From NCBI GenBank assembly GCA_963082975.1, contig OY720345.1, positions 27,474,611-27,538,610 of the forward strand: a stretch of 64,000 nt of DNA, in the 5' to 3' direction. The number at the start of each line of letters is the position of its first letter. Position 1 is the stretch's first letter. Made by a program: the position numbers and the translations under genes. The DNA comes from Labia minor. Taxonomy: Eukaryota; Arthropoda; Insecta; Dermaptera; Spongiphoridae. Shown here in pieces: positions 1-55,844 of this stretch. Below the pieces are notes generated by a model that worked only from the letters and a program-made list of their open reading frames with translations, did not search any database and was not told where the DNA came from.

Positions 1-64
1 TTTTTTATTTTAAATATAATTTTTGAAATTTGTAATTTAACGTTGTTATTCTCTTTTTATTTAG

Positions 65-233
65 ATATAAATCCAGAGAGGAATTTTATGTGGATGTTCG
101 CCAAATATTCATTAATTGTGAAACATTCAACGAAGATGACTCTCCTGTGGGCAAAGCCGGCCATAATATGCGCTCATTTTTCGAAACTCGTTGGCTGGAA
201 TTGTATGGCACTCATCCGCCCACCTCCACATGA
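65..233 (+). CDS. Last exon of a BAZ2/Toutatis-like bromodomain protein (partial)
   Basis: An AG acceptor at 63-64 opens a frame, entered with one base, that runs 55 codons to a TGA at 231-233. It starts YKSREEFYVDVRQIF and continues with NCETFNEDDS, GKAGHNMRSFFE and RWLELYG. This is the C-terminal half of a bromodomain: helix B, the BC loop with its acetyl-lysine-binding Asn (the N of ETFN, bases 129-131) and helix C. The run NCETFNEDDS..GKAGHNM..FFE.RW near the very C-terminus is typical of BAZ2A/BAZ2B and fly Toutatis, subunits of ISWI-type nucleosome remodelling complexes in the nucleus. The rest of the protein lies left of the window. The family is confident; the exact orthologue is inferred from memory of the motif. 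Confidence 0.85.
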
Positions 234-5508: not shown

Positions 5509-5571
5509 GGAGACCAAGGTCCCCAACAGACACATTTTGTCTGAACTTGATTCAAGCAAAATCTTTTAAAC

Positions 5572-7534: not shown

Positions 7535-7549
7535 AAATTTAAATTATTT

Positions 7550-7555
7550 AATAAA
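7550..7555 (+). terminator. Polyadenylation signal AATAAA
   Basis: AATAAA starts 16 bases after the stop codon of the small cuticle-type gene, with a second at 7577. Either would give a very short 3' UTR. Confidence 0.6.
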
Positions 7556-7710
7556 TTAAAACTTTTTTTTTATAAAATAAAACACAAAATCATTGTTTCC
7601 ATTTATTATTTCACTAAATTTATCCTTAATTAATCCTTAAAAATAAAAAAACCATCAAAATATGATAATAATTAAAGAATTAAATGATGAGTAAATTAAA
7701 TAATAAAAAA

Positions 7711-8353
7711 TAAGTTGACCTGTGGCCAGGTCTGAACCGACCGACAGTTTGAAATAAATTAATTTCCAGCTACATAAACAATTTCAAATAATTTTAATAT
7801 ATCTATTAATGTAATAAAAAACAGATAGGCATATAACATAAATATTTTTAATTTCATTTTATTTATAATATATATCTAAAAACAGGCTGTGACGTCATGA
7901 ATGGCTGGATGACGTCATATAATTTTTAATTAAGAAAAAAACTAATAAAGATGATTTTTCTCGAAGATAAAACAAATACAAAGTGAATGATTCGTGATAA
8001 TATGTAAAAAATCTCCTCATGTGAAATTTGGTGTGAAAATAACCCTTTCCTTCCTATCGTCGATCGCTAATACTACCACTTCCGGTTTCCGGATTTGCAC
8101 CAAAAGTTGATCAATTCATCCCACTGATGCATTAAGTAAATATACCAAATTTCATCAAAATCCGTTGAGCCGTTCAGGCTGTACACATCTATACGGACGG
8201 GCGGACGGACAGACGGACAGACGGACAGACATCATGCTAAAAATACTTTTTTCTGTTTAGAAAATGCATGATTCGTGGAGATATGTAAAAATCTCCACAT
8301 GTGAAATTTGCTGCGAAAACAATACCTCCCTTACTATCGTCGGTCGGTAAAAA
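7711..8353 (-). mobile_element. HINE-like family B, copy B1
   Basis: Read on the minus strand it starts TTTTACCGACCGACGATAG, has a (GTCY)n array near 8198-8230 and the core GAAATTTGGTATATTTAC. It ends CCGACGGTTCG-type sequence followed by the hairpin ACCTG-GCCA-CAGGT. CCGACCGACG near one end is inverted near the other. Two perfect TGACGTCA palindromes lie near 7889-7917. This is the DINE-1/mini-me layout. It is non-coding. Confidence 0.75.
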
Positions 8354-8530
8354 AGATTATAATTATAAATAAAGGATTATTCAAAGTGAATTCTAACCTA
8401 ATTAAGATCATCTACATTCTGTTTTTATAATAGTTGGATTATATAAAAGATTTATAAACGAGTAAAGAATGTCAATTGACTAGCTTTCATAAACTTTGTA
8501 GAAAAAATATGAGAACTAAATATCTTACAA

Positions 8531-12260: not shown

Positions 12261-15200
12261 ATGACCATGCTGCTCCGCAATATTATCGTCGTTGTGGCCG
12301 TCGTTTCCATTCAGGGAATCCTTGCCCAGGAATCAGTAAGTCATATTCATCAAAATTAATATATAAATTTCTACATTAAAAAAAAAAATTGAATATTCAA
12401 TTATTAAAGTTATAATAATTTGATTTTTCATAAGCGAAAAAATTTTTATATTTATTATAGATATATATATTATAAAAAATAATAAAATATTTTTCTTTTT
12501 AACGTAAACTTTATAAAAATAAAAATAATTCATAAAAATCTTTTCTTTCCACAGGATTAAACAAAACTACAATCTAAAAAAAATGCATATTGTAATAAAT
12601 TAAAATTTTTACATGGGTATCCTGTGATAGTTAATATCACTAGAATAAAATAATATTGTAATTTAAAAAAAAGTTAAAAAAAACATCGGGGAGGGGGGGG
12701 ATTATCCCTGATCTCTTAGTATTTTTTTTTTTTTTTTGAAATCATTATTATTTCAATATGAATATTGAATCTTTAATCTTACTTAATTTTAAATTTTCTT
12801 ATTTTAGTCATCTCTCATCTTTTCATTAGAATACAGTCCTTGAAATATACTTTAGAGGGAACTTTTAATTAATATTCATCATCATAGTTTAATTAATTTT
12901 TCCAAACAACCAATGGTAAAACAAATAAAACCAAGGACAATAAAACAAGTAAAATTATTGACCACCCTTGTAAGGCAAAGAATGTAATTTGTACATATTT
13001 GTCAAAAAGATGTTTTTCATAAAAATAAGCTATTATGCATATTAATATATATGCATATATATATATATATATATACCACTTCAAAAAATCTTATATGATC
13101 ATCGTTAAATTTTCAATTACAAAATTCGATTATATAATTTATTGATTTCAATATGAATTCAATATCAAATTACTATCACTAGCATAAGGGACAAAAATTA
13201 AAGAATAAATATGAAAAATATAAAAGAATAATAGAAAATTAATATTTTTATTTTATATTGTTTTTATAATTTTAAAAAAATATTTTTTTTACTAATAGTT
13301 ATCATAACAATAAAAAAATCTCTATTCTGGCTTTCAATTTGTAAAACAATTATAGGAAGAAATAAAATTATATTTAAAAGAAAATATTATATAACCATTT
13401 TTGAGAAAATGTGAAATTATTTATAAATCCATATTATTAAATTTAAATTAAAATCATATATATATAAATCATTCCTTCCAAATTATTAAATTACTTTCAC
13501 TTACATGTTCTTATATATATATAACATTTAAATACTATTATTTTTATTTTTAATATTTTTATTCTAAAAACAACAGAAAAATGGCTTTTTGTTTTATCTT
13601 ATCTTCTTTAATGCCATTAGTTTTTCTTTTAAACATTGAAATTGATAATTGACTTATTTCATGGACTCAATGAATAGGATTGCATTAGCAGTCTGGCTAG
13701 TATTTTGAAATAACAGGCACAATTTCTTTTTTTTTCCTTTTATAATACCGCCAGTTTGTCGTTTAACAATTTAAATATCTAAAAAAATATGGTCTTATTT
13801 CACCTTAAATATATAATAATTATTTTTAATAAGATGTTTATTAGCAAATAGTGATTAATGCTGTGTTATACGAATTTTCATAATAATCTAAATAGTATTT
13901 TTAAAACAGCTATTTCCAGGTTTGTTCATTTCTATATGAGGGTGTTTAAGATACCAATTATTTTGAAATATATAAACAATACTTGGATGAATTGTTTCAG
14001 GCCTAAACACAGAAATAGTGACCTGACCATTTTTAATTTTTATAATTTTTATAGTTTAGCAGATAACAAGATTACCTTTCATTATTTTTTCATATTTATA
14101 TTTGATTCTTGCTAATTCTCGAATAAAACAATCTTTATCACTCAACCAGAGTAAAAGATACTAACTTTTTTCATTTTTTTCATTTTAAGATGCAATACTA
14201 ATAATAATAGGAATAATAATAATAATAATAATAATATCAACTAGCTGCTCAGTTGTTTTTTACAAAAAAAAACATATTTTAAATATATTTCCACTTTATT
14301 TAATTTTTTTAAGAAATTTATCATAAATACACCATTGAGTTTCTATTTTTCCACGGTTAATTAAATATTATAATATCTTTCCTCTGGAGGTTGTTCTACT
14401 AAAAAAATACTATTTAATATAATTTGAAAAAAATTACATAGTAAAATGTAAATAAATATATAGGTATTTGATATAATAACTCTTTCCAAATATATATGTA
14501 TATATATATATATTATTTTAGGATCAAAAATATAACTCTGAAATTATTATAACAATACTTAAACATTATTAGAAATTCGTTTTTACTTTCGTTATCTAAT
14601 CCGTGAAAATGTTTTCTAATATGTATTATTATTTTCTTTTAGTGTATTAATTTTTAAAGTGTTTTAAATTATAATTATTACAAGAATTATAATAATTACT
14701 AAATCGATATTTAAAAATAAATTATAGGTGTATGCATTTATTTAATTAAGATAATTGTAAATAATTTTAAATGAGTATTTAACCTAGAAAATTTAAAATG
14801 GTCTCAACAAACCTTATTGTATTTTAGTGCCCTAAATGTTTTCTATAGGGAATATAAAATTTTTTTAAAAAAGTATTAGTTTTTATAATTTGTTTTTAAT
14901 ATAAATTTTAATTTTATATCCATTTTCGGATATTATTTTTATATTATATTTTTCTTAAATTAAAATCATATAATTCATATAAGAATACGGCTGCAAGAAT
15001 GATAATATGTTTCTAGTTTCAAACAACATTCTTTGTTTTTTATTAGAGTGATCATTTGTGATATGATAAAATAAATAAAATTGATTTATAAATAAAATTT
15101 TACCTATTATCAAATTTATTCAATAGAATGTCTTTAAAATATATATATTTAAGGAAAAAGAGGGATAATAGATAAATAATTAGTTTATTTTTTTGTGAGT

Positions 15201-18200
15201 TGATATTAGTTTATTTCGGAAACTTAATAAAGAAACCAATACCACAGACATCTGTGTTGTATATTAATTCACACAATATTACTATAGTAAACATTAAAAA
15301 GGATACATTCTATTATTTGCAGGTTTATAAAAGTTCGTATAAGTTTTTATTGTGAAATATATATACGAGGGTGGTCTGAAGAGTTTCGGACCTGACCAAG
15401 AAAAACGATGTTTTTCAATTTTTTGTTTGTTTTATTTTTCAAAATTCAAGATAGCTGAGACCTGTACGATGTCAGCTGAACGTGTGCGAAATATTTTGCA
15501 AAACCATTTGAATATGGAAAGCTGTGTGCAACGTGGGTGCCGCATTTCCTAACGTTAGACCAAAAATTGCTTCGACAAACCATTTCTAACGACAATTTGG
15601 CCCTGTAGGCCTAATCCAAACGAATTTTTGCGTTGATTCATAACTGTTGATAAGACTTAAATTAAATTATATCAAATTTAATTAATTAATTAATTAAATT
15701 AATTAGAACACCGTTATGAGAAATGTATCAGTGTTGATGGAGATTATGTTGAAAAATAAAACAAACAAAAAATTGAAAAGCTTCGTTTTTCTTGGTCAGG
15801 TCGGAAACATTTCACCACCCTCGTATGTATATATTACATCCTATATATTTTTATACGTATACTTCATATATATATATATATTCAATTATATTTTTATAAT
15901 ATATTTAATATATTCATTTATATTTTCACATCATATATATATAAACAAAAGATATTTATTTTGATAAAAATAGTATAAATTATATTTATTAGCAAAACAT
16001 ATACCATATATAATTGGTACTAATCAAATTATTTTCCTAATCCTTAAAATTTAAATCAATTTTCAAAAAATCGATGAAAAATTAAATATTTGAAAAATAT
16101 TTATTTAAAATTGAGTCCAAATCCTTCTCATTCCATTAAATTAAATTTAATTTATTGCATATATTAAGTAATAAAAGAATTAAAATATTATAAGAAATAT
16201 TAAAACGGGTATTTCCTTTTATTTTTTTACAGTCATCGAAATGTACCGTAGCGAGAGATGTGGCTGAAAGTCTTGAACGCGTGATTGAGGAGTGCCAGGA
16301 CGAATTGAAACTCTCCATCCTTCAGGGTAAGCAATCATTTTTATTATAATTTTCAAATCAGACAAAAATCCATTTGAATTCTAACCATTCCGGAAGAAAA
16401 TTTAATATTATTCATATTTTTTTCTTCTTCAACAATTTTAAAATAATTATTTATATGATATAAAATTAATATTCTATAATAATAAAAACTGGAATCTTTT
16501 CCAAAGATGGATTCAGGATGTTGTAAGATGATCTATTTGTTTTTTTTTTATATGAATTCATTTGAAATTTACAAAAAATTTTTAAAGCCTAAAGGAGAAT
16601 CCAAGAACATTTTTATATCTTAATAAGAGATGGATATCATTTGTCACATTATAAATCATTTATCTCTAATTTTTCCCAAATAATAAATTTATCAACCTAT
16701 AAATGAATGGTTGAATTAATTAACCTAAAATTCTATGTTCAGTGAACCATATGAAAAAAAAATATCTAAAAAAATAATCCATCCAAAAAAATAAAAAAAT
16801 TTCTCAGAAGAGTTAGAAAAAACGCACTTGTATGAATGTCTGAAACTAACCTTTATAGAATTTTTCATAATTTAGATCTACAAGTAATAAAGAAAATTAA
16901 TTAAATAGGTAAATTATTTAATTTAATATTTTTTACTTAATTTTTTTAATTTTTTACCGACCGACGATAGTAAGGAAGGTATTGTTTTCACACCAAATTT
17001 CACATGTGGAGATTTTTACATATCTCCACGAATCATGAATTTTCTTAACAGAAAAAAGTATTTTTAGCATGATGTCTGTCCGTCCGTCTGTCCGTCCGTA
17101 TAGATGTGTACAGCCTGAACGGCTCAACCGATTTTGATGAAATTTGGTATATTTACTTATAATGCATCAGTGGGATGAATTGATCAACTTTTGGTGCAAA
17201 TCCGGAAACCGGAAGTGGTAGTATTAGCGATCGACGATAGGAAGGGAAGGGTTATTTTCACACCAAATTTCACATGAGGAGATTTTTTTATATATCACCA
17301 CGAATCATACACTTTGTATTGGTTTTATCCTCGGGAAAATCATATTTATTAGTATTTTCTTGATTTAAAATTATATGACGTCATCCAGCACTTCATGACG
17401 TCACAGTCAGCTCTTATATATAATAAATAAAATAAAATTAAAAATATTTATGTTATATGCCTATCTGTTTTTTATTACATTAATAGATATATTAAAATTA
17501 TTTGAAATTGTTTCTGTAGCTGGAAATTAATTTACTTCAAACCGTCGGTCGGTTCGGACCTGGCCACAGGTCAACTTATTTTTTTTAACTAATTAAATCA
17601 AACAATTCAAATATTTGCATCCACTAATAATTACGTAGGTTGCTGGTGCTCAGGACACTTTCTTGAAAACTCATTAAAAAATTAATAATTTTAAATTTTA
17701 TGAAAAACCATGTCATACTAATCCATCCATTAATAAAGTAATAAGTGGTATTAAATTGTGATTATTTTTATTATGAAAAATATAAAATATTTATAGTCTA
17801 AGATGAGAATATGAAATATAAAACCCATTGGTAAGTTAGTATTATATCAGAACTTTTAGCTTATAATTAATTAAATAAATTCAAAATTATGTATATTTTA
17901 TTGTAAAAGTCATATTTTATTAATTTTTAAACATTGAAAAGATTCAGCCCTAATACAAAATAAATCATGTTGCCCATAGTATAAGTTTAATATTTATATA
18001 TAATTCATATAAAAAAAAAAACCTTCCATTTTATGTCAAATTTTGTAATTATGTAATTATTATTCTTATAAGTATTTTGAACTTTTCAAACAATGAAATT
18101 AAGACTCATTCAACGATGCGATGAAATTATTATTTTTAATTTTCTATTTAATCATTGATAACAGTTTCAACAAAATTATATATTCCTTCTATGTTTGAAT

Positions 18201-20632
18201 ATTTATTACATCTTTATTTACAAAAATTACATCACGTATGTACGTGAATTTAATATTATTTTTTTTCTTTTTAAACTAATATTTATACATCACTTTCATA
18301 ACTGTATTTCTACTAATATTATATTTTATGTTATCGGATATAAAAAATACCTTAATTATTATATAATTTTTTAACAAAAATCCAATTTTAGGGGTTGAGC
18401 CTTCCTCATTTCAAATTACAGAAGCTTATTTTTTAGGAATGTATTTTTAATTTATTTTGTTATTTGTAGTATCATAGTCCCATAAATCTGATTCAAAGAA
18501 ATATAAATTAAAGATTCCCTAAATAGTATACATAAAAAAACCTCTTGACTTTTGTACATCCTATGAAAGGGCAGAGTCTAACAAGTTGGTTGCCATCTAA
18601 GCTGGATAAAAATGTTCTATGATCAGTAATACGGATCCGATCAACCTTTATCTTGATTTTCTTGATCAGAGGCGCTACTTTTTATCAAGTAGTTTCCCAA
18701 TTTTGATCCCGGAGGCTGAGTGAACTCGGTCTCCTAGACCCCAGCTAAAGAAATGCCATATATATATATATATATTATATGAGGATGTGAGTCAAGCGCG
18801 TTGGACTCCAGACTGCGTAATGTCTTTTCTATGATTAGATATTGAATTATTAATTATTATGTTTTAAAAAATTATCATACGTTAATTTTAATCTTTTTTT
18901 TTTTTTTGTTTTGTTTAATTTGTCATTTAGATATAATACGTCAGAGCTTTGATGCTAAAAGAACGAAACGTGAAATTGAAACACCTGAAGATGATAATGA
19001 GAAGACCATAGCTGGGGTAAGTTTAGAATATTATATATATCTCAATTAAAAGTCCTCTAGTCATTTATTTAATCACTAATTTTGTGAATGTTTCTTGTAG
19101 TTTTGAAAAAAAATTATACATTCTCTTTAATAAATAAATATACTATATTATCTTAATTATAAAATTTTTGTACTTCTGGTTCTAATCAGAATTAAATATG
19201 AAAGAAATCGAGTTTATTTAATCTCTAACCTACATTTACATATTAACAAGAAAAAAATTTCTTAATACTTTTATAAATATATCATTTCATTTAGTTTGTC
19301 CTAATTTATTTATGCAAATAAATTTATTGAATTAATAATTTTTATTTAGGCAAAAATACATATTTAAATATTTTCTTATTTTAGAAATATAGTTGAAATT
19401 TAACTTTAAAACAATTTGTGTTTTACTACTTTCACTTATCTGTTGATCTGTATTTAAATTCAATAAGTGACGATTTTATCAATTTGGTGATCTGAATTTT
19501 AAATATAATGTAATGGTCTCTCTTAATAGGAAATAAGAAAATGGTTTTCCTATCGATTGATTAATTTTTGTGGATATATTTTATTTTCACTATCTATTTT
19601 GTAAAAAAATAATTTTTAATGAATGTTATAATTTAATTTCTATTGTTACTGTGATTTATTTTTAATATTTAAATAATTTACAAAATTTGAAGATATATAT
19701 ATTGTATATTTGAAATAAAATTGTATGATTATTTCTAAGATAAAAAAACATAATATAAATTGAAATTTAAAATCATTAATCATTTTTTTTTTAATTTTCC
19801 CAAATTTATTAATTTATTTATCATTTATATATATATATATAAATAACAAAATTATTTTATTATTAGACTATTTCTTCCCCATTTATTTAATAAAAAGTAT
19901 ACTCTTAATAATAAAAATAAAAATTATATATTTGTTTAACATCTTATTTAGATTTGTAAATTTAATACAATAATAAATATTATGATCTATGAATACTTTT
20001 TATTGAGGTTTAATAATGATGTAGGACACAATTACAAGATAATAATTTCTTTAATAGAATTTATATAGTATCTAATTCTAACTTTCCTTCATTAATGATA
20101 ATTTTTAATTTGGTACTAATTGATAATTTGCATTGCACTTTCACAATAAAAAAAAAATCTATCAATATATTCGTCGTATACGTTTAGTAATAAGCATTAT
20201 GTAATCAATTTTATATTAATTACTATTTAAATGGGTCAATAATGTTTATTATTATATGGGTTGGTTTATGCAAATATTACAAAACGTATAAGTGGGTTTT
20301 TTTTTGTGTTTTTTATTATAATAATCTGAGGTTGGATGGGTCAAACTCGTGTTTGGGTCAGTTTGAATTGCATAATGAGTCCAACCGGGAAAGTGTTGAT
20401 GTATATGTATTTTATCCCTCTCTCTTTTTCTCTTATTGCAGTGCTTGCTGCAGTGCGCCTACCGGAAAGTGAAAGCGGTGAGTCTACGACCTTTTAAATG
20501 ACATATCGGGGAGAATAACCTGAGAGGGAGGAGAAGAGAACAACTTAAAATACAAAAAAAATAATCATCTCACCATCACTGCACTTTGTCATAAAAAAAA
20601 AACAAAAAAAGTCCTCATCACGATTTAACCAC

Positions 20633-20678
<46 letters not shown>

Positions 20679-23600
20679 TGTTTTTATCAACTTTTCTGGG
20701 ATTTATTTTAATATGAAAGTTTTATTTAAATCATTCAAGTCATATTTAATTTTCTATTGAACAAAAAAAAAATATTGACAGTTCATCAGCCTTTCGTCTT
20801 AAATTTAATATTCAAAAAAATAAAAATTATTTTATAATAACTTAAATTAATCGTATTTAATAAATCCTGTTAATACTACTTATATATGCATTCGATAAAT
20901 TATTATTATTATTGCAATTATTATTATTAATATTATTATTATTGATCTTTGTAATGAATTTCCATTTGAACCAGCTTTCTCAGAATTATTGTGCAATTAT
21001 TTATTTAAATCTAATTGAACTTGACGAAGTTCGATCTCTTGAACTCAAGTTCAGCGGAATAAGATAAATTATTTTAATTATCAATTTTTTTTTCTATTAA
21101 ATTAAAATCAAGACAATAACTTGTAAAAGTATAATAATGTTTATTTAAGAATTATCTAATTTTTTTTTATTATCATTATCGTTTGATTAACCTTTGTATA
21201 TTGGGATGTTGAAGGTGGATCCATCTGGGTGGCCTACCCAGGAGGGGCTCGTTCGGCTCTATGCAGGGGGCCATACACAAGGACCTTATTTCGAGGCCAC
21301 CCGACAGGCAGTTCGTAGCTGCCTTGCTGCATCTATAAAACAACGCATCTTTTCAGGTTTACAATGTGAGTAACATAATTCATAAATTTCAATTTTATTT
21401 TTAATTTTAAGGTCGTGGTCATCGTCAGTCAATTATCATTATATTCTCCTGAAACACAAGAATTATAACCTTGAAACTAAAATTGTATTTTATCATTTTC
21501 AAGAAATAAACTTATTTTAAGGGATTAGGTTTATATTCTATTAAATAGAGTGAATTAAAAAAAAAAATTTAATTTTCTATTCATTAAATATTAGATTATT
21601 GTACATTACTATTGCATTTCATATTATTATACTATTAAATATTATTAGTTTTAATTAATTGTCATTTTTACAAATTTTAAATTTTTTACTTAGTCCATGC
21701 TTGTCTAAAGGGTGGCCTAATACCCTTTGAGATGCGGCCCAAACACAAATTATGAAAATATTTAAATTTATAATTTTTCCAATATTGTTCTAAAAAAAAT
21801 GCAATTAGGTCCTCGAATGATTATAGTTTAGACTTAGGCCAGTGGTTCCCAAACTTATTTGGCCAAGCGCTCCCTTTCCAGAAAATAATTTACTCAGCGC
21901 CCCCTTGGGAATTAACTTTTTTTAATTTTAATAACAATTAAACAGAAAGATAAATGTACCTATTTGCAAAATATTATAAATAAAGGTGTAAATTAGAAAC
22001 ATTGAATATTGTATCTATTTATTGATCTTAGAATAAAAAAATGTTTCTCAACCTTTTTGGACCAAACGCCCCCTTTGTAAGACCCGCTTCTTAATTCGCC
22101 CCCCCCCCCCCCCTATAAATCTTTACAGATAAAAATTGCATGATAATCCCTAATATAAGGTAGGTACACTAGGTGATACTTAGAGCCATATTGAAAAATC
22201 GAGTTTCAGAACCTGATTGCAAAATCATCTGACCTTTTTTTTAGAACCATTTTGAAAAAAGAGGAAATGTTTAAAAAGCCTGTTCGCAAAATCATCTTAC
22301 CTTTTTTTAGAGTTGAAAATGATTTCGCCCCCCAAAAATAACTTATCGCCCCCCAAAATCGTATAGTCAAATAATCGCCCCCTTTAAGATGACGATCGCC
22401 CAGGTTGAGAATCACTGACTTAGACGAAACAAAATTGATATCTATGAATATAATACTACTTTTTCATAAAATAATTCAAAAAAAATAATACTTTGTTTTA
22501 TATTATTATTAAATATGTTTTTTATCTAATTTATTCAATATTTTAATCTTAACTAATATTATTTACAGCCCTTGAAAATACTTTATAATAGATATTACAT
22601 TTTAATCTTTCTTTAGTTTTTACATTTTTAAAAAAATCTAAATAAAATAGACAATCAAATAATAAAAGAATTTACATAGAATATTATCAAATTTATCAAA
22701 TATGTAAATATATAATATTCATATGTAATTTTATTTCCTATTATTAGTAATTTATTATTTAAATAAATAAATAAATAAAACAAAAGAAAGAAAAAATTTA
22801 GTTTAAACAATCTAAAAATCATTTAAAATACAAAAAAAATCATTTTTTATTCAATTTGAATGAAAATTATGTATATATATATTTAAATATTATTATAATA
22901 ATAATTATTAATAATAAATAATAATATTCATATCTAATAAATAGAACAGGATGTATATTTATAATATGAAATTAAAAAAAAAATTAAAAAATATATAATA
23001 TTCAATTTTAAATAATTAAACTAGAAAAAATATATTTTATTTTTAAAATTTTTACTCCTTTCACTCTCAATGTTCGCTTCTGACGGCCAACATAAATCTT
23101 CTGATCGATCCTAGATATAAGAATATAACCATGTAAACATTGAACAACAATAATTTCTATAATTAAGAATCCCTTGGCATTATTAATCAATTCATGGATC
23201 GAATAAAATTGATTTAGGCGTGAGAAGGACAGGCATTAAAACATAAATTTAAACAGCGATTGTTAATTGAATTAATCTTTAATATATACATACCTTTTCA
23301 AGTTATAATTCGATGAGAAAAAACTTTTTTTAACTGCTAAATAAATACTTGGAAATATCAAAAAATAAAATTAATTTACTAACATAGATTTTTCATTCAT
23401 TTTTCCCTGGGTCTAATTTAGATTATTTTTATTTTAATAAATAATAGAATAAACCTTTGTGATCTTAATTCAATTTTACCTTGTTATCACAAAGAAAAAT
23501 TATAAAAATATAATTTAAAAATAAAAAATTAGGATCCATAAATATTATATGTAAATAGATTTTAACTTAATTAGGTATTCCAATGATCCAAGATCTCAAA

Positions 23601-25841
23601 GCTATTTTCCGGCCCTTGTACAGGGCCGCCCTAACCACAGGGCTAATTGGGCTATAGCCCTAGGGCGCAATCCTTCTGGGGGCGGCATTTTTTATTGGTT
23701 TATATATTTTTTCTTATTGTTAAATAGTAGTTTTATAGTAACCTCCAACCCGGAGTGACATCACGTCAAAGATTTTAATCATGCACATTCAAAATACATA
23801 TCTATTTTTCTTATTCATTATATCCGTATAAGCATTGAATAAATAATTTTAATAAGAATCCTAACAACAGCGATAATTGTGCAGTTTGAAAATGTTGACA
23901 TATAACATTTTCAACACAAATGACACTGTTTCAAATTTTATTGAAGAGTGTCTTTATTTTACGTGAATTTATTAGAAAATTTCTTATGAAAAGGGGCGCA
24001 AAATTTTAGAAGCCCACGGGCGCCGAAAATCTTAGGACGGCTCTGCCCTTGTAACAATTTTCTCATCTTAATAAACAGAAATTTGTAGATATAATAACTA
24101 TATTCATATGTAAATAATTTATATTCAATATAAATAAATAATATAGTATAATTTTTTTCTTAAAAAAAAACATCAATTATCCTTTCTCATTTCAAAAATG
24201 TAATTTTTATTCACTATCAATGTAAAATGATTGATATATACCTGCTTTTGCTTTAATAATTCTTGTAAAGAAAACACCTATCAAATCGATTGCCACCTAA
24301 GCGGAGTAAAGGTTTTATTTGATCAGCACAACGGATCTTCTCAACCTTTATCTTTATTTTCTTGAAATTGATATATTAAATTGTATTATTTATAGTTATT
24401 TTTATATATAAGAAACACGGTGTGCATCCTGGAATCTTAGAAATTCTTTCTTTTATAAAAAATACAAAAAAATTAAAATAAAATGTCTTCAGGCCTCAAT
24501 TACTTTAATCAATAATCTCAATATTAATATTATAATATTATTAAGAACTAAATAAACTAAATAAAATAAAATTAAAAAAAAAATAAATAAAACTAAATAA
24601 TTCAACTTACCTTTTGTAGATTTTTCCGCATAAAAAAACGAATACTTAAACAATAAAATATATAAAAAAAAAATTATATTCAAAATAAACAATAAAATAT
24701 AGGTATATAATATAATTTATTTCATTTAATGAGTGTCTATTGAAGGAATATACTCTTTACACTATATCAAAATAAAATAGTTTTCTCAATTCATTATTTA
24801 TCCCCTTTAAATAGCATATGTTCCAGATCTTCATCTTCAAACCCACATCTTTGTTAAGTTGTCCTAATTATTATAATTTATAATTTTTTTTTTTATTTAT
24901 AATTTTAAAATATTTACACTTTGAATGAAGAAGGTTGAATAATGTTAATCTAAAGAGAAGGGCATTTTTTTATTCTCTCTTGCCATTCATGAGCTTGTTG
25001 AATTTCCCCTTTTCATTTAATTAATTTAATGAGAAAGATGTAAAAGAGTAATAAATATTTTGGGAGAAGGTGATTGGAGGTTTATTGACCAAGGATCTCA
25101 TTCTATTCTGTTTTTCCTTGGCCTCCGGATGGAACCGCTCTTCTTCTTCACCCTTGTTAGTTAATTAATTAATTACCTTCATAAGGAAAGAATAACCTCC
25201 TTTATTTGATACTTTAAGAATAAATTAACATTAATCGTATCTTTTTATATGTTTCAGCTACCGAGTATAATTGTGATTTTGCATATGATATGTTTGAATG
25301 TGTTAGTGGACAAATAGAAAAAGTAAGTACATATTGTAAATATTTATTTTTTTTTTAAAAAAAATAAGGAAACTATAAAAATAAAATTTGACCTTTTAAT
25401 GTTATTTAGTTTTATTAAATTTTATTCAAAAAATAAGATACTATTATGTATTTTGTTTTAGAATAAAATAAGTTACATAAAATAAAAATAAAAATAAAAA
25501 CTAAAAATATATTATTTTCTTCTAAGGTGTAATAATTTTCATCGCCCCCCCCCCCTCCCCAAAAAAGTCGGAAATGTTGTTTAAGAGCCTCTTTACATTC
25601 ACTGTCTTAGTCAATTTTTTTAAATAACATTTTCTCTTGGATATGCTCGCGTCCCCTCCCCCCCTCATTAGTTTGCACCTAGGGGGGGGGGGGGGCCCCA
25701 CAGGCTAGGAATCACTGGTGTAAGGAATTACAATATTCATAAATTGAACATTATGAATGCTAAAATATTATAATTAATATAATCAATTTATTTAATAATT
25801 GTTTAATAATATTTTTTTTGTTTTAGTTTTGTGAAAATTGA
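12261..25841 (+). CDS. Odorant-binding-protein-like secreted protein (PBP/GOBP family), seven exons
   Basis: Exons: 12261-12335, 16233-16326, 18931-19016, 20442-20477, 21215-21365, 25258-25322, 25827-25841; all introns GT-AG and all phases agree, giving 173 residues. Residues 1-22 (MTMLLRNIIVVVAVVSIQG..) are a signal peptide; translation may start at Met3. The mature part is helical with eight cysteines at 29, 46, 86, 90, 133, 153, 162 and 171. CLLQC (C-X3-C) followed by AYRKVKAVDPSGW, and NCDFAYDMFEC (C-X8-C), are hallmarks of the PBP/GOBP fold (PF01395), small extracellular carriers of hydrophobic ligands. C46-C86 is longer than usual because of a basic/acidic loop (KRTKRE..PEDDNEK). Cys29 and Cys171 are extra, as in Plus-C-type OBPs, and could pair. 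Weakest points: the exon 5 acceptor (TTGAAG, poor pyrimidine tract) and the five-codon last exon. The ligand is unknown. Confidence 0.8.
15364..15825 (+). mobile_element. Internally deleted mariner element (M4)
   Basis: The inverted ends begin TACGAGGGTGGTCTGAAGAG and, on the other strand, TACGAGGGTGGTGAAATGTT, at TA sites. The interior keeps the transposase piece MSAERVRNILQNHLNMESC, then broken frames around SNPNEFL, and near the right end a VDGDYVEK-like C-terminus. The whole catalytic core is deleted and replaced by a TTAA-rich stretch. It sits in intron 1 of the OBP-like gene. Confidence 0.8.
16951..17580 (+). mobile_element. HINE-like family B, copy B3
   Basis: A full copy in intron 2 of the OBP-like gene: TTTTTACCGACCGACGATAG head, (GTCY)n at about 17076-17100, the GAAATTTGGTA core, and the hairpin tail ACCTGGCCACAGGTCAAC. 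It carries two TGACGTCA palindromes near 17378 and 17397. Confidence 0.8.
18553..18680 (+). repeat. Unclassified dispersed repeat, family F copy 1
   Basis: TTTGTACATCCTATGAAAG, GGTTGCCATCTAAGCTGGAT and TTCTATGATCAGTA recur in the same order near 24265, 31060 and 35135. No terminal repeats or coding sequence were found. Size suggests a SINE or truncated element, but no pol III boxes were recognised. Confidence 0.5.
20635..20676. repeat. (AT)n microsatellite
   Basis: An uninterrupted alternating AT run of about 40 bases in intron 4 of the OBP-like gene, just downstream of the short fourth exon. Confidence 0.9.
21840..22417. mobile_element. Composite hAT element
   Basis: The outer ends are CAGTGGTTCCCAAACTTATT and GGTTGAGAATCACTG, flanked by ACTTAGGC (21832-21839) and ACTTAGAC (22418-22425). 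A second hAT left end, ATGTTTCTCAACCTTTTTGG, starts near 22041, and from there the sequence is nearly that of 53456-53844. So one hAT is nested in, or fused to, another. A C-run of about 16 bases near 22098 is only about 6 long in the 53-kb copy. It lies in intron 5 of the OBP-like gene. Confidence 0.75.
23621..24045. mobile_element. hAT-like element with CAGGGCCGCC ends
   Basis: The left end CAGGGCCGCCCTAACC is inverted at the right as GGACGGCTCTG. It is flanked by the exact 8-bp duplication CCCTTGTA (23613-23620 and 24046-24053). It is non-coding and lies in intron 5 of the OBP-like gene. Confidence 0.8.
24263..24365 (+). repeat. Unclassified dispersed repeat, family F copy 2
   Basis: It has TTGCCACCTAAGCGGAGTAA and TTTGATCAGCACAACGGATC, followed by CAACCTTTATCTTTATTTTC as in copy 1. 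Confidence 0.5.
25534..25717. mobile_element. Decayed hAT MITE
   Basis: The right end is GGAATCACTG. Flanks are GGTGTAAT (25526-25533) and GGTGTAAG (25718-25725). The left end is eroded. It contains a C-run near 25546 and a 14-base G-run near 25683. It lies in the last intron of the OBP-like gene. Confidence 0.6.
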
Positions 25842-37152: not shown

Positions 37153-37384
37153 GTAGGAACACCGATCATAAACACCATCGTTAGATTGATAGGAAAGAAT
37201 TATTATTTTTTTTTGTTTATTAAATTTAAATTAAAAATATGAAATTCAAAGGTTGCTCATTAGATATTTCACTAAATTTTTCGGTTTTATTTTTCAGTAA
37301 TAATATTTTATATAAATTCAGTGTAAAGTCAGTATACTAATATACATACATTAATGATTCAAGAATTCTATCAAGTCTATTTGT

Positions 37385-37979
37385 ACTATCTCGTAAGAGA
37401 TAGTATTGCGATCACGAAAATTTTCGATGTCGAGATTTTGATGTTTATATACCTTTTGAAGGTTCCTGAATCATTTTCACTAAGGTTGAGAAAAATGTCT
37501 GTCTGTGTGTGTGTATGTATGTAACCAAGATTACGCAAAAACGGTTTGAGCTAGAATTATGAAATTTGGTACATGAGCATTATTCAAAATTCGTAGTTTT
37601 CTATCAACTTTTGAGAAATGTAGCTCAACCGGAAGAGGGTCATTGCCTACAACGATTTGATTTTTTTCCTCTAAAGTGACCGTAAAAATAAAGATATATG
37701 TTTGACAATTTTTACATGATTAAAAATTGTATAAAACTGCTATATATAGAATTTCAACTTGATTGATTTGCTGAAATTACCAGAATTAATTTTTTAACAT
37801 TGCAAATCTCACGCGCCAACACGTGACGTGGTGCCATCAACAAAAAGCCAAACATGCGCTGGTTTAATAAATAGTATTTATTAATTTATAATTAATTAAA
37901 TTTAATTTAAATATAATATATTATGTTATTTAATCCAATTCAAATTTGCGAGATAGTCGAGTGGAGACACTCCAGCTAA
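37385..37979 (+). mobile_element. HINE-like family A, copy A2
   Basis: The best-preserved + strand copy: ACTATCTCG head, (TG)n near 37500-37520, GAAATTTGGTA core, and GCGAGATAGT followed by the GAGTG/CACTC hairpin and CAGCTAA. It lies in the 5' UTR intron of the cuticle gene. Confidence 0.8.
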
Positions 37980-39965: not shown

Positions 39966-40137
39966 TATTGAAAAATGTATATTGCATTGCAATATTAAGA
40001 TTTTGAAGTTCAATATTCACTTCATATATTGCAGATTACATTACATTACATTACTAGCAAAATTTAAAAAATTGGAGTTATTCGGTTTAGCTTCTGAATG
40101 GCTCATATGTAGAGATAGATTGTTATTATTATAAAAA

Positions 40138-42823: not shown

Positions 42824-45800
42824 ATGTCTTCTACGACGGCGGCGGCTGCGACCTTGCTATGCCTAACTTTGGCGGGGGTGTTTGCTGAGGGACCCGAGGA
42901 ATATCTTGATATTCAAAAAGGTGGCAGTTATCGATTCGGTTATAAAACAGGTACAATTAAATTATATGATTTATTATTCTAAAATTAACTAATATTCATA
43001 CATATTTTAATCCAAATTGAATAATTGAAATCAAAGAAAATTACATAATTGGATGATCTAGAACAGTGGTTTCCAAACCTATTTCGCCAAACGGCCCCTT
43101 TCCAGAAAAAAATTTACTCAGCGCCCCCTGAAAATTAACTTTTTTTAATTTTAATAACAATTAAACAGAAAGATAAATGCACGTATTCTCAAAATATTTT
43201 AAATAAAGGTATAAATTAGAAACATTGAAATTATGTATTTATTTATTGAACTCAGAATAGAAAAGTAATATATAAGTAATTTTCCCTAAATCCACCTGTG
43301 GCCATCACCGCCCCCTGGATCGCTGCAACACCCACGAGGGGGCGGTAGCGGCCACTTTGGGAATCACTGTTCTAGATACTGGTAATAAAAATTTTAAAAG
43401 CTAAAATTGAAAATATATGGATTATGTTTATATAGATCGTAATTTAGTACAACTAAAGATAAAACAATTTTTCAATAAATAACTTTTTTACCGACCGACG
43501 ATAGTAAGGGAGGTATTGTTTTCACACCAAATTTCACATGTGGAGATTTTTACATATCTCCACGAATCATGCATTTTCTTAACAGAAAAAAGTATTTTTA
43601 GCATTATGTCTGTCTGTCCGTCCGTCCGTATAGATGTGTACAGCCTGAACGGCTCAACGGATTTTGATGAAATTTGGTATATTTACTTAATGTATCAGTG
43701 GGATGAATTGATCAACTTTTGGTGCAAATCTGGAAACCGGAAGTGGTAGTATTAGCGATCAACGATAGGAAGGAAAAGGTTATTTTCACACCAAATTTCA
43801 CATGAGGATATTTTTTACATATCACCACGAATCATGCTCTTCGTGGTGGTTTTATTCTCGAGAAAAATCATCTTTATTAGTTTTTTTCTTAATTTAAAAT
43901 TATATGACGTCATCCAGCCATTCATGACCAGCCTGGTCTTACATATATATTATAAATAAAATAAAATTAAAAATATTTATGTTATATTCATATCTGTTTT
44001 TTATTACATTAATAGATATATTAAAATTATTTGAAATTGTTTCTGTAGCTGGAAATTAATTTATTTCAAACCGTCGGTCGGTTCGAACCTGGCCACAGGT
44101 CAACTTATTTTAATAAGTATTTTGACTCGTATCCTTCCTTCTTAAAAATAAATCTTATCTTATTATGCTAGCTAAAATTGTATATATGTATTTATCTATA
44201 TATATTGGTTCTCAAAAACCGCTCTAACGATTTTTTTCAAATTCACACTAGATATAGTATTTATAAAGAAAAATTAAGTTTTATTGATGATATCTCTTGA
44301 AACATACAGCTTCATTATTAATTTCTTAATTGAAAATTATATATGGAAAACGTCAAAATTTTTAATACTGCCTGCTAAGACAGTAAAAAAATGACAATTT
44401 TTTATCTAAATACATATAGTCCAGCGGTTGGACTGATGTTTTAACGAGTGGATTTCGTCGGTTCGAAACTCGCCGGGTGAATCGTTATTTAAAAATGAAA
44501 ATAATGATTTTGTTATTTTTTTTTCTTTTTATCTATTGTTTACTTTTTAATAAATTACTATTCTATATTTATTTATTCATTGTTCTTTTATTAATAAAGT
44601 TTTAGATAGTTTTATAAGTTTTAATATTTTTTCAATAAAATATTATTCAATATATTTATTAATATTATTTTATTTATTATTATTGAGTACCCGAAGTTCC
44701 ATTCATTTTAATCAGATTGATGCAATGATGCAACAGTTAATAATTGTAATATTGTAATAAATTTCTATCTTGAAAATTGTTACATATTATTCAGGATATT
44801 TTAAAAACTATTTCTTTCTTTAATTAATATTCATTTTTTCTATAAGTCAGATATATTTCCAAATATTAAATAATTTTTGAAGTGAAAACTTCTTTAGCGG
44901 CGTTGAGCACTTTTGCGGGATGGGGAAAAAGTATAGAACTCGCGTGATCGTGACTAACACCATGAAACCATCTGCTTTCAAATTTCTTATAACAGAGCGC
45001 GAAATTTGAATTGTCATTAGAACTGTTTTATAAATTATCTCTAACATATAAATATATATTTATTATGTAAAGTTCATTTCATATATACATATATAATCAA
45101 AATTATACGAAATGAACTTCACATAATAAATATATATTTTATGTTAGAGATAAGAATTATAAAACAGTTCGTATTGCAATATTTTAAACAAAGTTGTGTA
45201 TTTATATATATATAAATATAAGTTACAAATTTGTTTAAAATATATGTTTAAAATAATATATAAGTTATATATATATACATGCATATGAAATTCATCTTTC
45301 TCGTGAAATAGCGCGAATTTCGTCTGTTTTAAAATTTCTTACGCAGAAGTTTTCACTTCTGTCGGCCAGTCCCACGACTGCCAATTTTGCTTTTTTAATT
45401 CCGAAAAGCTGCAAAGCACGTTTTTTTGTCTTTAGTTTGTTTTATAACCACTTGGGGCGCTAAACAGTTTTTCAAAAAAACACTATAGAAAAAAAATATA
45501 TGTACCTATATATTATATATTTATGTATTATTGAGGAGCACAAGTTCATTAATTTTAATCAGATTGATGCAAATGTGTAACATTTAATAATTGTAATAAA
45601 TAATTAAAGAATTGTGTATCAATATTTTTTAAAGGGTAGAGCGAGAGCTCGGTGTCCCAGGTATTAATATTACCAGCCAAATCCAATAATAATGAATCAT
45701 TTTTTTTAACTTAAGTACCGAGCCGAGGCTCGGGGTCCCGGTACTAAAATATTTATTCTCATAAACAAAAACTGTTAACTACTGTTTTAAAAAGTTATTT

Positions 45801-48800
45801 GAATATCAAAATCATGTTCAAATATTTTTTCTAAATAACCTTGATAAATTACTTCTGGAAAAAAATCACTCGGATTATTGGTGTATTTCTATTAGAATGT
45901 TGAAGAAGAAGAATTGAGGTCCTATTTTAGGTTAAATTAAAATTTAATTGAATTTTAACAAAGTTTTTCACAAAAACTGAAATAATATTCATAAAGATGT
46001 ATGGTTTTTAATTAAGGATAGATGATACATGAAGGATGTTGAAATTTTGGTATTAACTACTCCATTTGATATGTCTAGTTAAGATATTTTTATAAATTAT
46101 TAGTTAAAAATTTAACTTGATAATATGTTATAACTGAAATTTGCATAAATAATCAATAAATTTGAAATTACATTGAGCATATTATTATATAATTATAACA
46201 AAAAATTTACTTTTTATATTTTTAAATTTAATTTTAATTGATATAACTAATTTTATAAATTAATTAATTTTTTTAAAGATATATAAATATAGCATATAAT
46301 GAGTTGTGGTTGAATGAATGATTATATTATATCATAAATCATTGAAGTTAAATACATATTAATTATTTCATTTCATTTATAAATTAAATTTATATAAAAA
46401 ATAATTTATTTTCACTAAGTAAAATTCGTAATTTTTAGATTTAAACATAGATATGTGTGTGGAATGAAATGATCATATGAATAAAATTTATTCATTCCCT
46501 GTTTTTTAATATACTGTTCCTCTTATGCGACTAACCGAAGTATAACTGAATTTAACTATTATTATTATTTGGTTAATTTTTTTTTATTTGACATAAATCG
46601 CGTCCCACTCTATTCTATCTAAATTAAGGCGAATGATTAAATTGAATGAATATTTTTTGTCTTTATCCAGATTAATTAATTAAAAAGCATTATTATTATT
46701 TGCGGATAGACCCTGGTGAGAGCTTTACCGAGAAATTATTAATTATTGGTATTCCCTAGGCCCGAACCCGAGTCTTCAGTGTGGTAGACTGTCGTGCTAA
46801 CCACTGAAGAGTCTTTAATAAGCATAATACTTATTTAAATAATAACAATTTTTACATATATAGGTAAATAAATGATATTTCTCTTAGTAGCTATATTAAA
46901 TCAAAAAACTAATAAATAATTATAAATAGAAGTCAAGATTATAATTTCGAAAACAATTATCGATATGATTTTTAACAATAGTAATTGAAAAATTTATAAT
47001 TCCAATTCAATCCTCATTAATAATTATAGTAATAATAGTTATTATAAATTACAAGATGTTGGAATATAATTGCTAAAATAAATGGGTAAATGATTAATAT
47101 AAAAGATCATAAGGAATTAATGGAGGAAAAATAAACAACAGGGAGATAAAAAAGAACAAAAGTTTTTTTTTTGTTTGTTTAACTTTTTTTGATTGTATCT
47201 TGTGATAATTCGTCATTCTAGAGGATGTTTAACTGTCTAATGGCTTATGGTTAAATAATTAAGCCACAGTGTCGGAAGTGGAACACGGCATTGAGCCTCC
47301 CGAGCTGCGTCTTCTGCTGCTGCATCCAAATGAGCCTAATGAGGCTGCTTCACAATGAACGGCCAGCCTAGACCCAGATGAACTTCCGCTCCCCTCACCC
47401 ACCACCACCATATCAACTGCATTTATCAAACAAATCCCTCCCCCAAGATTTATTACTTCAGTTTAATCGGTTTATTATTATTTATTCAAACAATTCAGTT
47501 TTCTATTTTCTATTAATTTAAAAAAAAATACAAGGATAAAGGGGCGTGGTAAAAACTCTAGAATTTAAATATTATACATATATTTTAAAATTTTTAAAGG
47601 ATGGATTGGTTATTATTATTGTCCTCCAATTCTATATTAATATATACAATAGGATGTAGATTGAAATAAGGATTGTAGAATGGATAACATTGATATACTA
47701 GTATATATAAAAAATCTGGAGTTTCTCCACTCAACTATCTCGCAATTTTAAAATGGATTAATAAAAACATATATTATATTTAAATTAAATTTAATTAATT
47801 AAATTATAAATTCCAATTAATAAAATTAATATTTATTAAACCAGTGCGTGATGGCAGTCAAGGTGTTAAAAAATTAATTCCAGTACTTTCAGTGATTCAA
47901 TCAAACTGAAATTCTATATTTAGCAGTCTTATACAATTTTTAATCATGGGAAAAACTATCAAACATATATCTTTGTTTTTACGGTTAGTTTAGAGGGGAA
48001 AAATGAAAACGTGGTAGATAATGACCCTCTTCCGGACGAGCTACCTTTCTCCAAAGAAAACTACGAATTTTGAATAATGCCCGTGTACCAAATTTATTTT
48101 TCTAGCTCAAACCGTTTTTGCGTAATCTTGTCTACGTACACAAACACACACACAGACACAGACATTTTTCTCAACCTTATTGTTAGTGAAGATGACTCAG
48201 AGTTCCTGAGTCAGGGACCTTCGAAACGTATAAAATCATCAAAATCTTGACATCGAAAATTTTCGTGATCGCAATACTATTTCCGGCGAGATAGTAAAAA
48301 CTATAGAATAGGTAATTAATAACTACTGTATATTATTATTCAAAAAAGCTAGAAATTATTTTTTTTATTTACCCGATAATTTGATGGATAGCCCTGTAAG
48401 CTATTCAACAGAAACAACAACAATTCATAGAATCCATTTACAATATTGACCGACAATGAATACAAAAATATTTTTTCTAAAAAATCCCATAATTATTAAA
48501 TCTACATATTATTAGACATTTTTAGTAAATCAAATATTTCCAAATTTATTATTTGACTAATTTAATGTAATTATTAGATCATGTTAATTCATAGTAATTC
48601 TACATAATAATAAGATTATATAAAAAATTACATTTAATTAAACATTAAACTATAAGTTTTTCTTTTTAAAGTAAAATCTCGAAAATGTGACCTTTTTAAC
48701 CATAATATATTCACTTTTGTGTTTAATTGCATTAGGTGATACGGGCGGTCATTTTCATCATGTTGATTCCACTGGAAAAGGAAAAGATCAGGTTGTAAGA

Positions 48801-51800
48801 GGCCGCTACGGATACAAGGATCCTGAAAAACCTGGTGCAGAACTTACTGTAGAGTATACCGCCGGTAACAGGGGTTTCCGTGCACGAGGCCCTCATATTT
48901 ATAGGAAAATGGATCTCTCTCAAGGAGGACCTTTTTACAAGTAATTATTTACATCAACAAAAAAAAAAAACAAAAAATTATAACATTATTTATGAAGGTG
49001 AAATATTAAATGAAAAATTATTCTTCTAATTATAACAAAAATTACTATTCTTTATTAATATAATAACAATATAATCTAATAATTATAACTATTTAATATT
49101 CAGAGTAATTATAATCATCTTAAAAATAATCACTAAAAGATAAATTAACTATTATTAAAAATAAAACAAACCTTGATTTATATATTATTATTTAGAAAAC
49201 GGAAGAAAATATTCAGACAATGATTATTGTCATCAAAATTCTTATTTTTATTTAATGAGACTGATATATGAAAGATAAATATCTCTCTAGTTATTTTTAT
49301 CTGAATAGAATCACACTAATTAAAGAAATATTTATATTATAATGATTAAATAATCAGTTGAAATTTGTATTTTTTATATAAAAAAAGAGATTTGATGATT
49401 TGCTTCTTTTTTTTTTTATTTTGTTTTAAATAAATAATTAATCCAAACACTTGATTTATATTTTTAATTAACTATATAGGTATATATATATACTTATTTA
49501 TTTATTTATTTTTTAATGTTTTGTTACTTATCTAGAAATTTATTAATCATTTTTTTTCTTTAAACTGATTATAAATCAAAAGTAATAAGCGTGAATAACC
49601 TTATATACTAAATTAAGAAAGCATTCATTCTGATATTTTAAAATATTCATTAATCATTTATATTATTTTTTTTAAATTAATAGCGGAAGAGTTAATATAT
49701 TTTAGAAAATAAGGATCCAACACTATCGTTCGACTAATTTCATTTGAAATTAAAATAAAAACGAATGGGTTTTCCCAGGACCTTGATTTATTAAATAATT
49801 ATAAAAAAAAGTAAGAAATAAATAAACGAGAATATTTGAGAATTCTTATATATATATTTAATTCAGGAAGTATTATTCACATGCTATCTATATATATATA
49901 TATATGAATTAGATTCTTATAATTTAGTTAATTTATTCATTTTAATAGGTAATTTAATTAATGATGATAATGATGATCAATGTCGAATTTATTATGCTAG
50001 AAATAATTAAGCCCGCCAATTTGAAACAAAAACAATATTAAAAGATAAAAAAGAAAATAAATGCAAAAAAAAAATTTCAAACTAACATAAATATTAAGTA
50101 GTACTTATTACTTAATTATATGTTAGCTATTAATTTATTATTCTATTATTTTCAATAAAACTAATATTAATATTAATTTATTTTATTTAGACAAAGTCCT
50201 GATTATGCTGATCCAAATGACGACCCAAGCTACGAGTTTCAATTCAATAAACCTGGGCATTCGCGGCATGAGATAAGTGATCGAAATCGAAATATTACAG
50301 GCAATTACCAATTTATTGATGATGTTGGTGATATCCATCGAGTAGCTTATGAAGCAGGGGCAGGCAAAGGATTTATTGTCAATACATATACACCTGATGA
50401 TGACAGTCAAGTGCCACCGAACAGCGGTTTTATTGCTGGTAAAACACCCCCAGGTAAACCCACAAGAGGAAAAGCAGCCGTTTTATCGAAAAAAGATGGA
50501 TCTTATAGGCAAGGAATCTACTTTTGATATAATTTAATGATCAATGGTTCTTGTAATGTCGTTTGAATTTTATGTTTATTTGACAGATTTAGAACTGCTG
50601 GACCGGATCAAGCACGGGAGGAAGAACGTTCAGCTGGTGGTTATGTTCGCGGATCCTACACTTATCGAGATGATCGAGGGCAATTACGTAAAACAGAATA
50701 TATTGCTGGGCCAGGAACTGGTTATAAAGTGATAAAAACTTTACTGAATGGACAACCTTCTCCTGGAACACTTCCAGACGGTTATCCTTCGCCTCCATAT
50801 CCACCACCACCACCTCCTTTTCCTAATCCTCCACCACCTTACCCAAATCCTCCATTCCCACCATTGCCCTCATCTGAAGGAGAGAGTGGTTCAGGAACAT
50901 CGGGATCTGGAGGACAGGGTGGTGGAACAAGGCCTGGTGGAACTCGTCCTGGAGGAACAAGACCAGGTGGTACGCGTCCTGGAGGAACACGACCTGGTGG
51001 CGGTACACAACAAGGTGGTACAAGACCTGGTGGCGGTTCTCAACAAGGTGGTACAAGACCTGGAGGCACGGGTACAAGACCAGGCACTTCGGGTGGCAAT
51101 GAACCCCCGTCATATGGAGGCAGTTCAGGTAGTGGAGATGACGGAAATTATCCTGGAACAAATGGTGAAGGTTATGAAGGTGGAGATGGATCATCAGGAC
51201 CCGGAGAAGATGGAGGAGGTGGCGATTATGAAAACGGAGGAGGCGATTTATCCACAGGGGGAGGTGGTGATTATGGATCGGATGGAGATGGAGGTGGAGA
51301 CGATGGTGGAGGAAGTTTTACATCTTCAGGTGGGGGAAGTTTTACGACATCTGGAGGAAGCAGCGGAAGTGGAGGAGGATTTACACCATCGGGAGCAGGA
51401 CAAGGAGGAGGAGGAGGTGGAAATTATCCCCCTTCAGAGGTATTAAATGAATTAAAAGAATTAAAACAGTTAAACGAATTAATGGAATTAAAAGAATTAA
51501 ATGAATTAAATGAATTGAATGAAATTAATGAAATTGATAAATCCTTTTAATTTTTGAATCTATATTTAGACAATATTATTATAGAAATTATTTAATCAAA
51601 AATATATTCTATCTTATCACCGGTATTGATAATCTAGTCGTTAATAATATTTTGTTGAATTTGCAAATGAACTAATGAATTCTCTAGCATGTAATAATTT
51701 TTTTTTGCCGTAAATGTAAAGTCTTGACGAAATTTCTCTTTAAATTAGTTACAATAAGAAAAAAAAATTGAAAATAAAAATACTTAATATTTAAGTTATT

Positions 51801-55834: not shown

Positions 55835-55844
55835 AAAAGCGGAG

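What the first reader, a model, noticed from the sequence alone, without database searches (positions are those of the whole stretch)
12261..25841. An odorant-binding-protein-like gene in what looks like a non-insect arthropod
Seen: seven in-phase exons coding a signal peptide and the spacing C-X39-C-X3-C-X42-C-X19-C-X8-C, plus outer Cys29 and Cys171. Known: C-X3-C and C-X8-C mark PBP/GOBP (PF01395) proteins; classical OBPs are considered hexapod-specific, with only divergent OBP-like proteins reported from some chelicerates and myriapods. Inferred: if the organism is a crustacean, this is an ancient or divergent OBP-like member with an extra N-to-C-terminal disulfide and an inserted charged loop, possibly a carrier for host or pheromone cues.
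Basis: partly seen in the sequence, partly recalled or inferred. Interest (0 to 1): 0.88.

Follow-up and report, generated by a model that had tools for sequence, protein, structure and literature searches.

The report
Ordinary insect Obp73a odorant-binding protein gene
The gene is real and does encode an odorant-binding protein, but the animal is an insect and the gene is its copy of the long-known, widely shared insect gene Obp73a; the one fresh point is a possible protein-cutting signal found in all the relatives in which it could be scored.

Summary
In detail: seven GT-AG exons join in frame into a 173-aa protein with exactly the stated cysteine spacing, and it passes Pfam's PBP/GOBP cut-off (32 bits, cut-off 22). 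The non-insect interpretation does not. Of 99 homologues found with a profile, every one with a visible organism name is an insect; labels include 'OBP 70' and 'OBP73a'. About 17 kb downstream lies Cpr73D, listed next to Obp73a in Tribolium (PMC4117572). The window's own 604-Mb genome has 109 exon-level matches to the insect odorant-receptor family PF02949; odorant receptors were not found in copepods (PMC9692914). So this is an insect Obp73a orthologue. Both 'odd' features are family traits: the outer cysteines are invariant in 40 of 40 aligned orthologues, and the charged loop carries a furin-type R-x-[KR]-R motif in 94 of 94 scorable members (34 of 34 non-redundant) against 3.8 of 94 in shuffles. 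I propose, untested, that Obp73a is cut into two disulfide-linked chains; two paper searches showed no report of this. The insect's order is unresolved (long branch; outside Holometabola).

The parts
12261..12335 (+). OBP exon 1: start codon and signal peptide
   Evidence: signal peptide judged by eye (hydrophobic run..GILA|QES); not hit separately
16233..16326 (+). OBP exon 2: outer Cys29 and C1 (Cys46)
   Evidence: tblastn with orthologues
18931..19016 (+). OBP exon 3: charged C1-C2 loop
   Evidence: not hit separately; aligned
18960..18971 (+). codons of RTKR (aa 67-70), furin-type motif R-x-[KR]-R
   Evidence: motif in 94 of 94 scorable family members, window included
20442..20477 (+). OBP exon 4: CLLQC (C2-X3-C3)
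21215..21365 (+). OBP exon 5: up to and past C4 (Cys133)
   Evidence: best single exon, E 7.8e-10
25258..25322 (+). OBP exon 6: C5-X8-C6 (Cys153, Cys162)
25827..25841 (+). OBP exon 7: FCEN-stop with outer Cys171
   Evidence: the C-terminal Cys is invariant in 40 of 40 aligned orthologues
42887..53217 (+). Neighbour gene Cpr73D (chitin-binding RR domains); homologous pieces at about 42887-42952, 48735-48940, 50191-50510, 50588 onwards, 52529-53217
   Evidence: exon ends partly guessed (one assumed GC-AG intron)
36..230 (+). Open frame holding an exon of a BAZ2/toutatis-type bromodomain
   Evidence: PDB BAZ2B, E 2.4e-15; an MBD domain further upstream

Best explanation
The gene is the insect's orthologue of Obp73a (also annotated 'general odorant-binding protein 70'), an old OBP conserved across insects. 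The protein is most likely secreted, folds as a helical OBP with the three classical disulfides (46-90, 86-153, 133-162 by family rule) plus an outer 29-171 bridge, and carries small hydrophobic molecules in extracellular fluid. My leading guess for its invariant R-x-[KR]-R loop between C1 and C2 is that a furin-type convertase cuts it on the way out, giving an N-chain (about residues 23-70) and a C-chain (71-173) held together by the 46-90 and 29-171 bridges. Shown here: gene structure, family membership, conservation of motif and outer cysteines, insect origin, neighbourhood with Cpr73D. Inferred: secretion, disulfide pairing, ligand binding, cleavage. The role is probably broader than host or pheromone sensing. 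The confidence given is for identity as an insect Obp73a orthologue; for the cleavage step alone I give 0.45.
Confidence: 0.93

Rival explanations
1. One reading: a crustacean (copepod) OBP, an ancient or divergent member outside insects, perhaps a carrier of host or pheromone cues.
For: The window is a very long branch in both gene trees, and an AU test on the OBP tree does not reject grouping it with Odonata and Ephemeroptera, i.e. outside Neoptera (p 0.133). No homologue exceeds 56% identity, so the lineage is poorly sampled. The protein search needs shared five-residue words and could miss very distant crustacean relatives.
Against: 109 matches to insect odorant receptors PF02949 in the same genome, 93 of the 109 marked over cut-off (six of these only together with neighbours in the frame), many clustered; that this family is confined to insects is recalled. 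ORs and OBPs were not found in 18 copepod transcriptomes (PMC9692914, passages). No visibly named crustacean among 99 OBP or 56 Cpr73D homologues. Contig C71 holds a partial mitogenome whose gene order (genes named by eye) I recall as ancestral for insects and some crustaceans, while copepod mitogenomes are, as I recall, strongly rearranged.
Confidence: 0.02
2. Obp73a orthologue as above, but the R-x-[KR]-R motif is a conserved basic surface loop (for example for binding an acidic partner or membrane) and is not cleaved.
For: No experimental cleavage data. Conserved basic motifs have other uses. OBPs are commonly described as single chains (general knowledge).
Against: The P4 and P1 arginines and P2 K/R are kept in 94 of 94 scorable members while the loop around them varies in length and sequence, and the residue after the site varies only among E, D, A, Q, S, never K or R. 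The loop is the least ordered part of the orthologue model.
Confidence: 0.4
3. A pseudogene or wrongly joined set of exons.
For: Long introns with repeats, a fast-evolving sequence, and three exons without a separate homology hit.
Against: All seven exons are open, in phase and GT-AG bounded, and the joined product keeps the columns that are invariant in its alignment with 13 orthologues, all eight cysteines among them.
Confidence: 0.03

Closest known systems
Insect Obp73a / 'general odorant-binding protein 70' orthologues (e.g. Lycorma P0009, Diaphorina P0001, Periplaneta P0039)
   Same: Eight cysteines with C-X3-C, C-X8-C and a further X8 to the last Cys (86 of 94 scorable members, window included), R-x-[KR]-R before C2, GCLLQC and AYDxFxCVS-type motifs; Cpr73D as neighbour where that could be seen
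   Different: 15 instead of the commonest 12 residues between the basic motif and C2 (12 in 66 members, 15 in 13), a C-terminus that ends right after FCEN, and a long branch
Classical OBPs with solved structures (Leucophaea PBP 1p28, Bombyx PBP 1dqe, LUSH)
   Same: Predicted helical fold of the orthologue resembles them; weak sequence matches to PBPs and OBPs; six-cysteine core
   Different: They lack the outer N-to-C cysteine pair and the convertase motif (recalled, not tested)
Obp59a
   Same: The other OBP conserved across insects (PMC8067015, passages); also has outer cysteines as I recall
   Different: No homologue with a visible name carried that name; not compared by sequence here
OBP-like proteins of chelicerates and myriapods (e.g. 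Varroa OBP1, 7nyj)
   Different: Lower rank than insect OBPs; none among the named hits

Membership tests
PBP/GOBP family (PF01395, insect OBPs) | Profile match above Pfam's gathering score | tested here: met
   32 bits against cut-off 22, E 1.4e-7, residues 34-163
PBP/GOBP family (PF01395, insect OBPs) | Six-cysteine signature with C2-X3-C3 and C5-X8-C6 | tested here: met
   X39-X3-X42-X19-X8
PBP/GOBP family (PF01395, insect OBPs) | Helical OBP fold | tested here: inconclusive
PBP/GOBP family (PF01395, insect OBPs) | Secreted; binds small hydrophobic ligands | not testable with these tools
   Signal peptide seen by eye only; no binding assay possible
Obp73a orthologous group | Similarity to annotated Obp73a/OBP70 across insect orders | tested here: met
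   99 hits, labels such as 'odorant-binding protein 73a [Lycorma delicatula]' and 'general odorant-binding protein 70' among them
Obp73a orthologous group | Outer Cys pair and R-x-[KR]-R loop (features defined here from the group) | tested here: met
   Cys29, Cys171, R67, R70 line up with invariant columns
Obp73a orthologous group | Chromosomal neighbourhood with Cpr73D | tested here: met
Obp73a orthologous group | Falls inside the group in a tree rooted with other OBP classes | not tested
   No other OBP classes were fetched; the trees hold this group only
Crustacean OBP | Host organism is a crustacean | tested here: not met
   109 insect odorant-receptor matches in the same genome; all visibly named homologues of two genes are insects
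Plus-C OBPs | Two extra conserved cysteines plus a conserved proline | not tested
   Two extra cysteines are present, but the Plus-C proline and positions were not compared
Furin-type convertase substrates | R-x-[KR]-R in a flexible loop | tested here: met
   Motif in the window and in 94 of 94 scorable members; loop under pLDDT 50 in the orthologue model
Furin-type convertase substrates | Cleavage takes place | not testable with these tools
   Needs protein data

The most novel reading that the evidence does not exclude
Obp73a, one of the few OBPs shared by nearly all insects, is not a single-chain carrier but a convertase-processed protein of two disulfide-linked chains, tied by the classical C1-C3 bridge and an extra N-to-C bridge, a form not known to me for OBPs. 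Processing could open or retune the ligand pocket, or make the N-terminal helix part of a signal, giving this old OBP a job outside smell.
Probability: 0.45. Interest if true: 0.55.

Novelty: new member of a known kind. Interest (0 to 1): 0.25.

Why it matters
As a finding about crustaceans it falls. What remains useful is a complete Obp73a-Cpr73D neighbourhood from a poorly sampled insect, and a testable hint about a protein that almost every insect keeps: an invariant convertase motif that predicts a two-chain mature form. If confirmed, recombinant Obp73a made without convertase may have been tested for binding in the wrong form.

Tried and rejected
Rejected: crustacean origin. Considered and not settled: which insect order. 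The OBP tree joined the window to Orthoptera (95/80) with the Hemiptera clade (99/97) excluding it; the program warns that so long a branch is placed unsurely. AU tests: with Hemiptera p 0.048 (OBP only) and 0.104 (OBP plus Cpr73D); with Orthoptera plus Blattodea p 0.383; with Odonata plus Ephemeroptera p 0.133; control Odonata plus Ephemeroptera without the window p 0.384. Holometabola rows exclude the window with 100/100 in the Cpr73D tree and 100/99 in the joint tree (beetles and moths only); in the OBP tree they are not one clade. My first guess from the psyllid hits, that the window is hemipteran, is therefore not upheld.

Dead ends: PF01395 in the own genome gave 0 matches, which shows only that exon-by-exon search is too weak, because it also missed this gene. 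PDB sequence searches: four weak matches to PBPs/OBPs with the single sequence (best E 0.66), none at E <= 0.01 with the profile. Viral fold library: nothing at E <= 0.001. Rfam on the window: nothing at gathering score. Base composition, tandem repeats and the mitochondrial contig did not name the species.

Six of the 100 family rows (99 hits plus window) were dropped from the motif count because the GC[LVI][LIM]QC anchor was absent: P0025, P0082, P0090, P0091, P0097, P0099. Trees used 48 of 99 OBP hits, 26 of 56 Cpr73D hits and 20 species rows.

Full report
What was checked. The spacing is X16-X39-X3-X42-X19-X8-X8, as reported. The product matches PF01395 with 32 bits against a cut-off of 22. 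Orthologues from other insects find four of the seven exons (2, 4, 5 and 6) separately inside the window, with tblastn E-values for exon 5 of 7.8e-10 (Anabrus), 1.9e-9 (Periplaneta) and 5.0e-7 (Diaphorina); exons 1, 3 and 7 were not hit on their own.

What it is. A single-sequence search found four proteins, E 1.6e-29 to 7.6e-29; three carry names, from the psyllids Diaphorina, Cyamophila and Cacopsylla. A profile search with these found 99 proteins at E <= 1. Where an organism is visible it is always an insect: Hemiptera, Blattodea, Orthoptera, Coleoptera, Neuroptera, Lepidoptera, Ephemeroptera, Odonata. The labels include 'general odorant-binding protein 70', 'odorant-binding protein 73a', numbered OBPs and hypothetical proteins. 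A review calls OBP73a and OBP59a the two OBPs with clear orthologues in almost all insects (PMC8067015, passages seen). Of eight orthologues scanned, seven match PF01395 and one, of a moth, does not at E <= 0.001.

Neighbourhood. The gene at about 42.9-53.2 kb on the same strand is Cpr73D, a cuticle protein: Pfam PF00379 in three exons; 56 homologues at E <= 0.001, all visibly named ones insects, best Halyomorpha 52% and Timema 50%, some labelled Cpr73D; pieces placed by tblastn. In Tribolium, Cpr73D (TC016311) and Obp73a (TC016310) are consecutive entries in a table of neighbouring genes (PMC4117572, passage). Among the hits, the longest contigs of OBP and Cpr73D have the same length in 4 of 8 species that list both with contigs (Tribolium, Cryptolaemus, Aricia, Operophtera; in Cryptolaemus the tags are HHI36_003812 and HHI36_003811) and differ in 4 (Halyomorpha, Cimex, Zophobas, Plutella). 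Upstream lies a BAZ2/toutatis-type gene (bromodomain exon in 36-230; MBD domain in the flank), downstream another RR cuticle gene and frames with DUF4774.

The organism. The window lies in a genome of 604 Mb in 71 contigs, on a 95-Mb contig. That genome has 109 matches to PF02949, the insect odorant-receptor family, best E 2.3e-13, 93 of 109 marked over the curated cut-off (six of them only with neighbours in the frame), many clustered; they are exon-level matches, some with stops, not counted genes, and the 14 control genomes gave none. Copepods were reported to lack odorant receptors and OBPs in 18 transcriptomes (PMC9692914, passages), and OBPs were reported only from hexapods (PMC4145409, passages; PMC8067015), with more distant OBP-like proteins in chelicerates and myriapods (PMC8214410, passages). 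A small contig, C71, is a partial mitochondrial genome in the order nad5-H-nad4-nad4L-T-P-nad6-cob-S2-nad1-L1-rrnL, protein genes named by eye; I recall this as the ancestral order of insects and some crustaceans but not of copepods. The animal is thus an insect. Which order is open: the window is a long branch in both gene trees, apart from the Holometabola (100/100; 100/99), nearest by path to Orthoptera, Blattodea and Phasmatodea; Hemiptera are marginally rejected by one AU test (p 0.048) and not by another (p 0.104).

The loop. After thinning at 70% identity it is 34 of 34; shuffled loops give 3.8 of 94 on average and 11 at most; the next residue is E 38, D 18, A 17, Q 11, S 10. The hits came from a profile of related sequences, so divergent members without the motif could have been missed; no visibly named dipteran was among the hits. 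In the AlphaFold2 model of the Periplaneta orthologue (mean pLDDT 80.5) the only segments of three or more residues under 50 are 62-64 and 66-72, and the motif is at 69-72; variable loop length in the alignment may contribute to that. This is what a furin-type cleavage site in a secreted protein looks like. Two paper searches for OBPs with furin or proprotein convertase (5 and 4 papers, listings; one followed to passages, where furin is among seminal-fluid proteases) showed no report of it; most subscription papers are not covered.

Mechanism. Most likely a secreted carrier of small hydrophobic molecules; my leading guess for the loop (0.45, against 0.4 for an uncut loop) is cleavage by a furin-type enzyme into two disulfide-linked chains. 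Shown: sequence, motif conservation, low model confidence of the loop in an orthologue. Inferred: secretion, pairing of cysteines, ligand, cleavage. A weevil Obp73a was found in all five tissues tested, in whole heads mainly in females (PMC9961831, passages), which speaks against a purely olfactory or host-finding role.

Verdict. Observation confirmed, taxonomic claim refuted, a new member of a known group. The fresh element is the invariant convertase motif, a hypothesis with a simple test.

Noticed in passing
window 15366-15826 (intron 1 of the OBP): A short element with long inverted ends (ACGAGGGTGGTCTGAAGAGTTTCGGACC... and roughly its reverse complement), mariner-like by eye.
   Followed up: no
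window about 7690-8360, 16950-17600, 43480-44110, 62734-62962: Copies of one repeat of up to about 650 bases, 91-95% alike in the pairs seen; one lies in intron 2 of the OBP.
   Followed up: partly
window about 6140-6755, 37380-37990, 40130-40730, 41350-41990, 47700-48300, 55275-55838, 58232-58528: A second repeat family of about 600 bases, roughly 67-91% alike.
   Followed up: partly
window 33151-33890 (-): Broken mariner-type transposase pieces (PF01359 over cut-off in one frame).
   Followed up: no
window 50177-50600: In Cpr73D the frame continues only if an intron with a GC donor (AG|GCAAGG at about 50510) is assumed.
   Followed up: no
window 7184-7531 (+): A GC-rich open frame with AAP repeats, like a short cuticle protein by eye; no Pfam match at E <= 0.1.
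   Followed up: no
L038 about 5520-8000: The partial mitogenome on C71 has roughly 2.5 kb without a gene that I could recognise between trnS2 and nad1; true insertion or assembly fault unknown.
   Followed up: no
L015 5858-7832, L018 1934-2185: Three DUF4774 (PF15999) frames downstream of Cpr73D.
   Followed up: no
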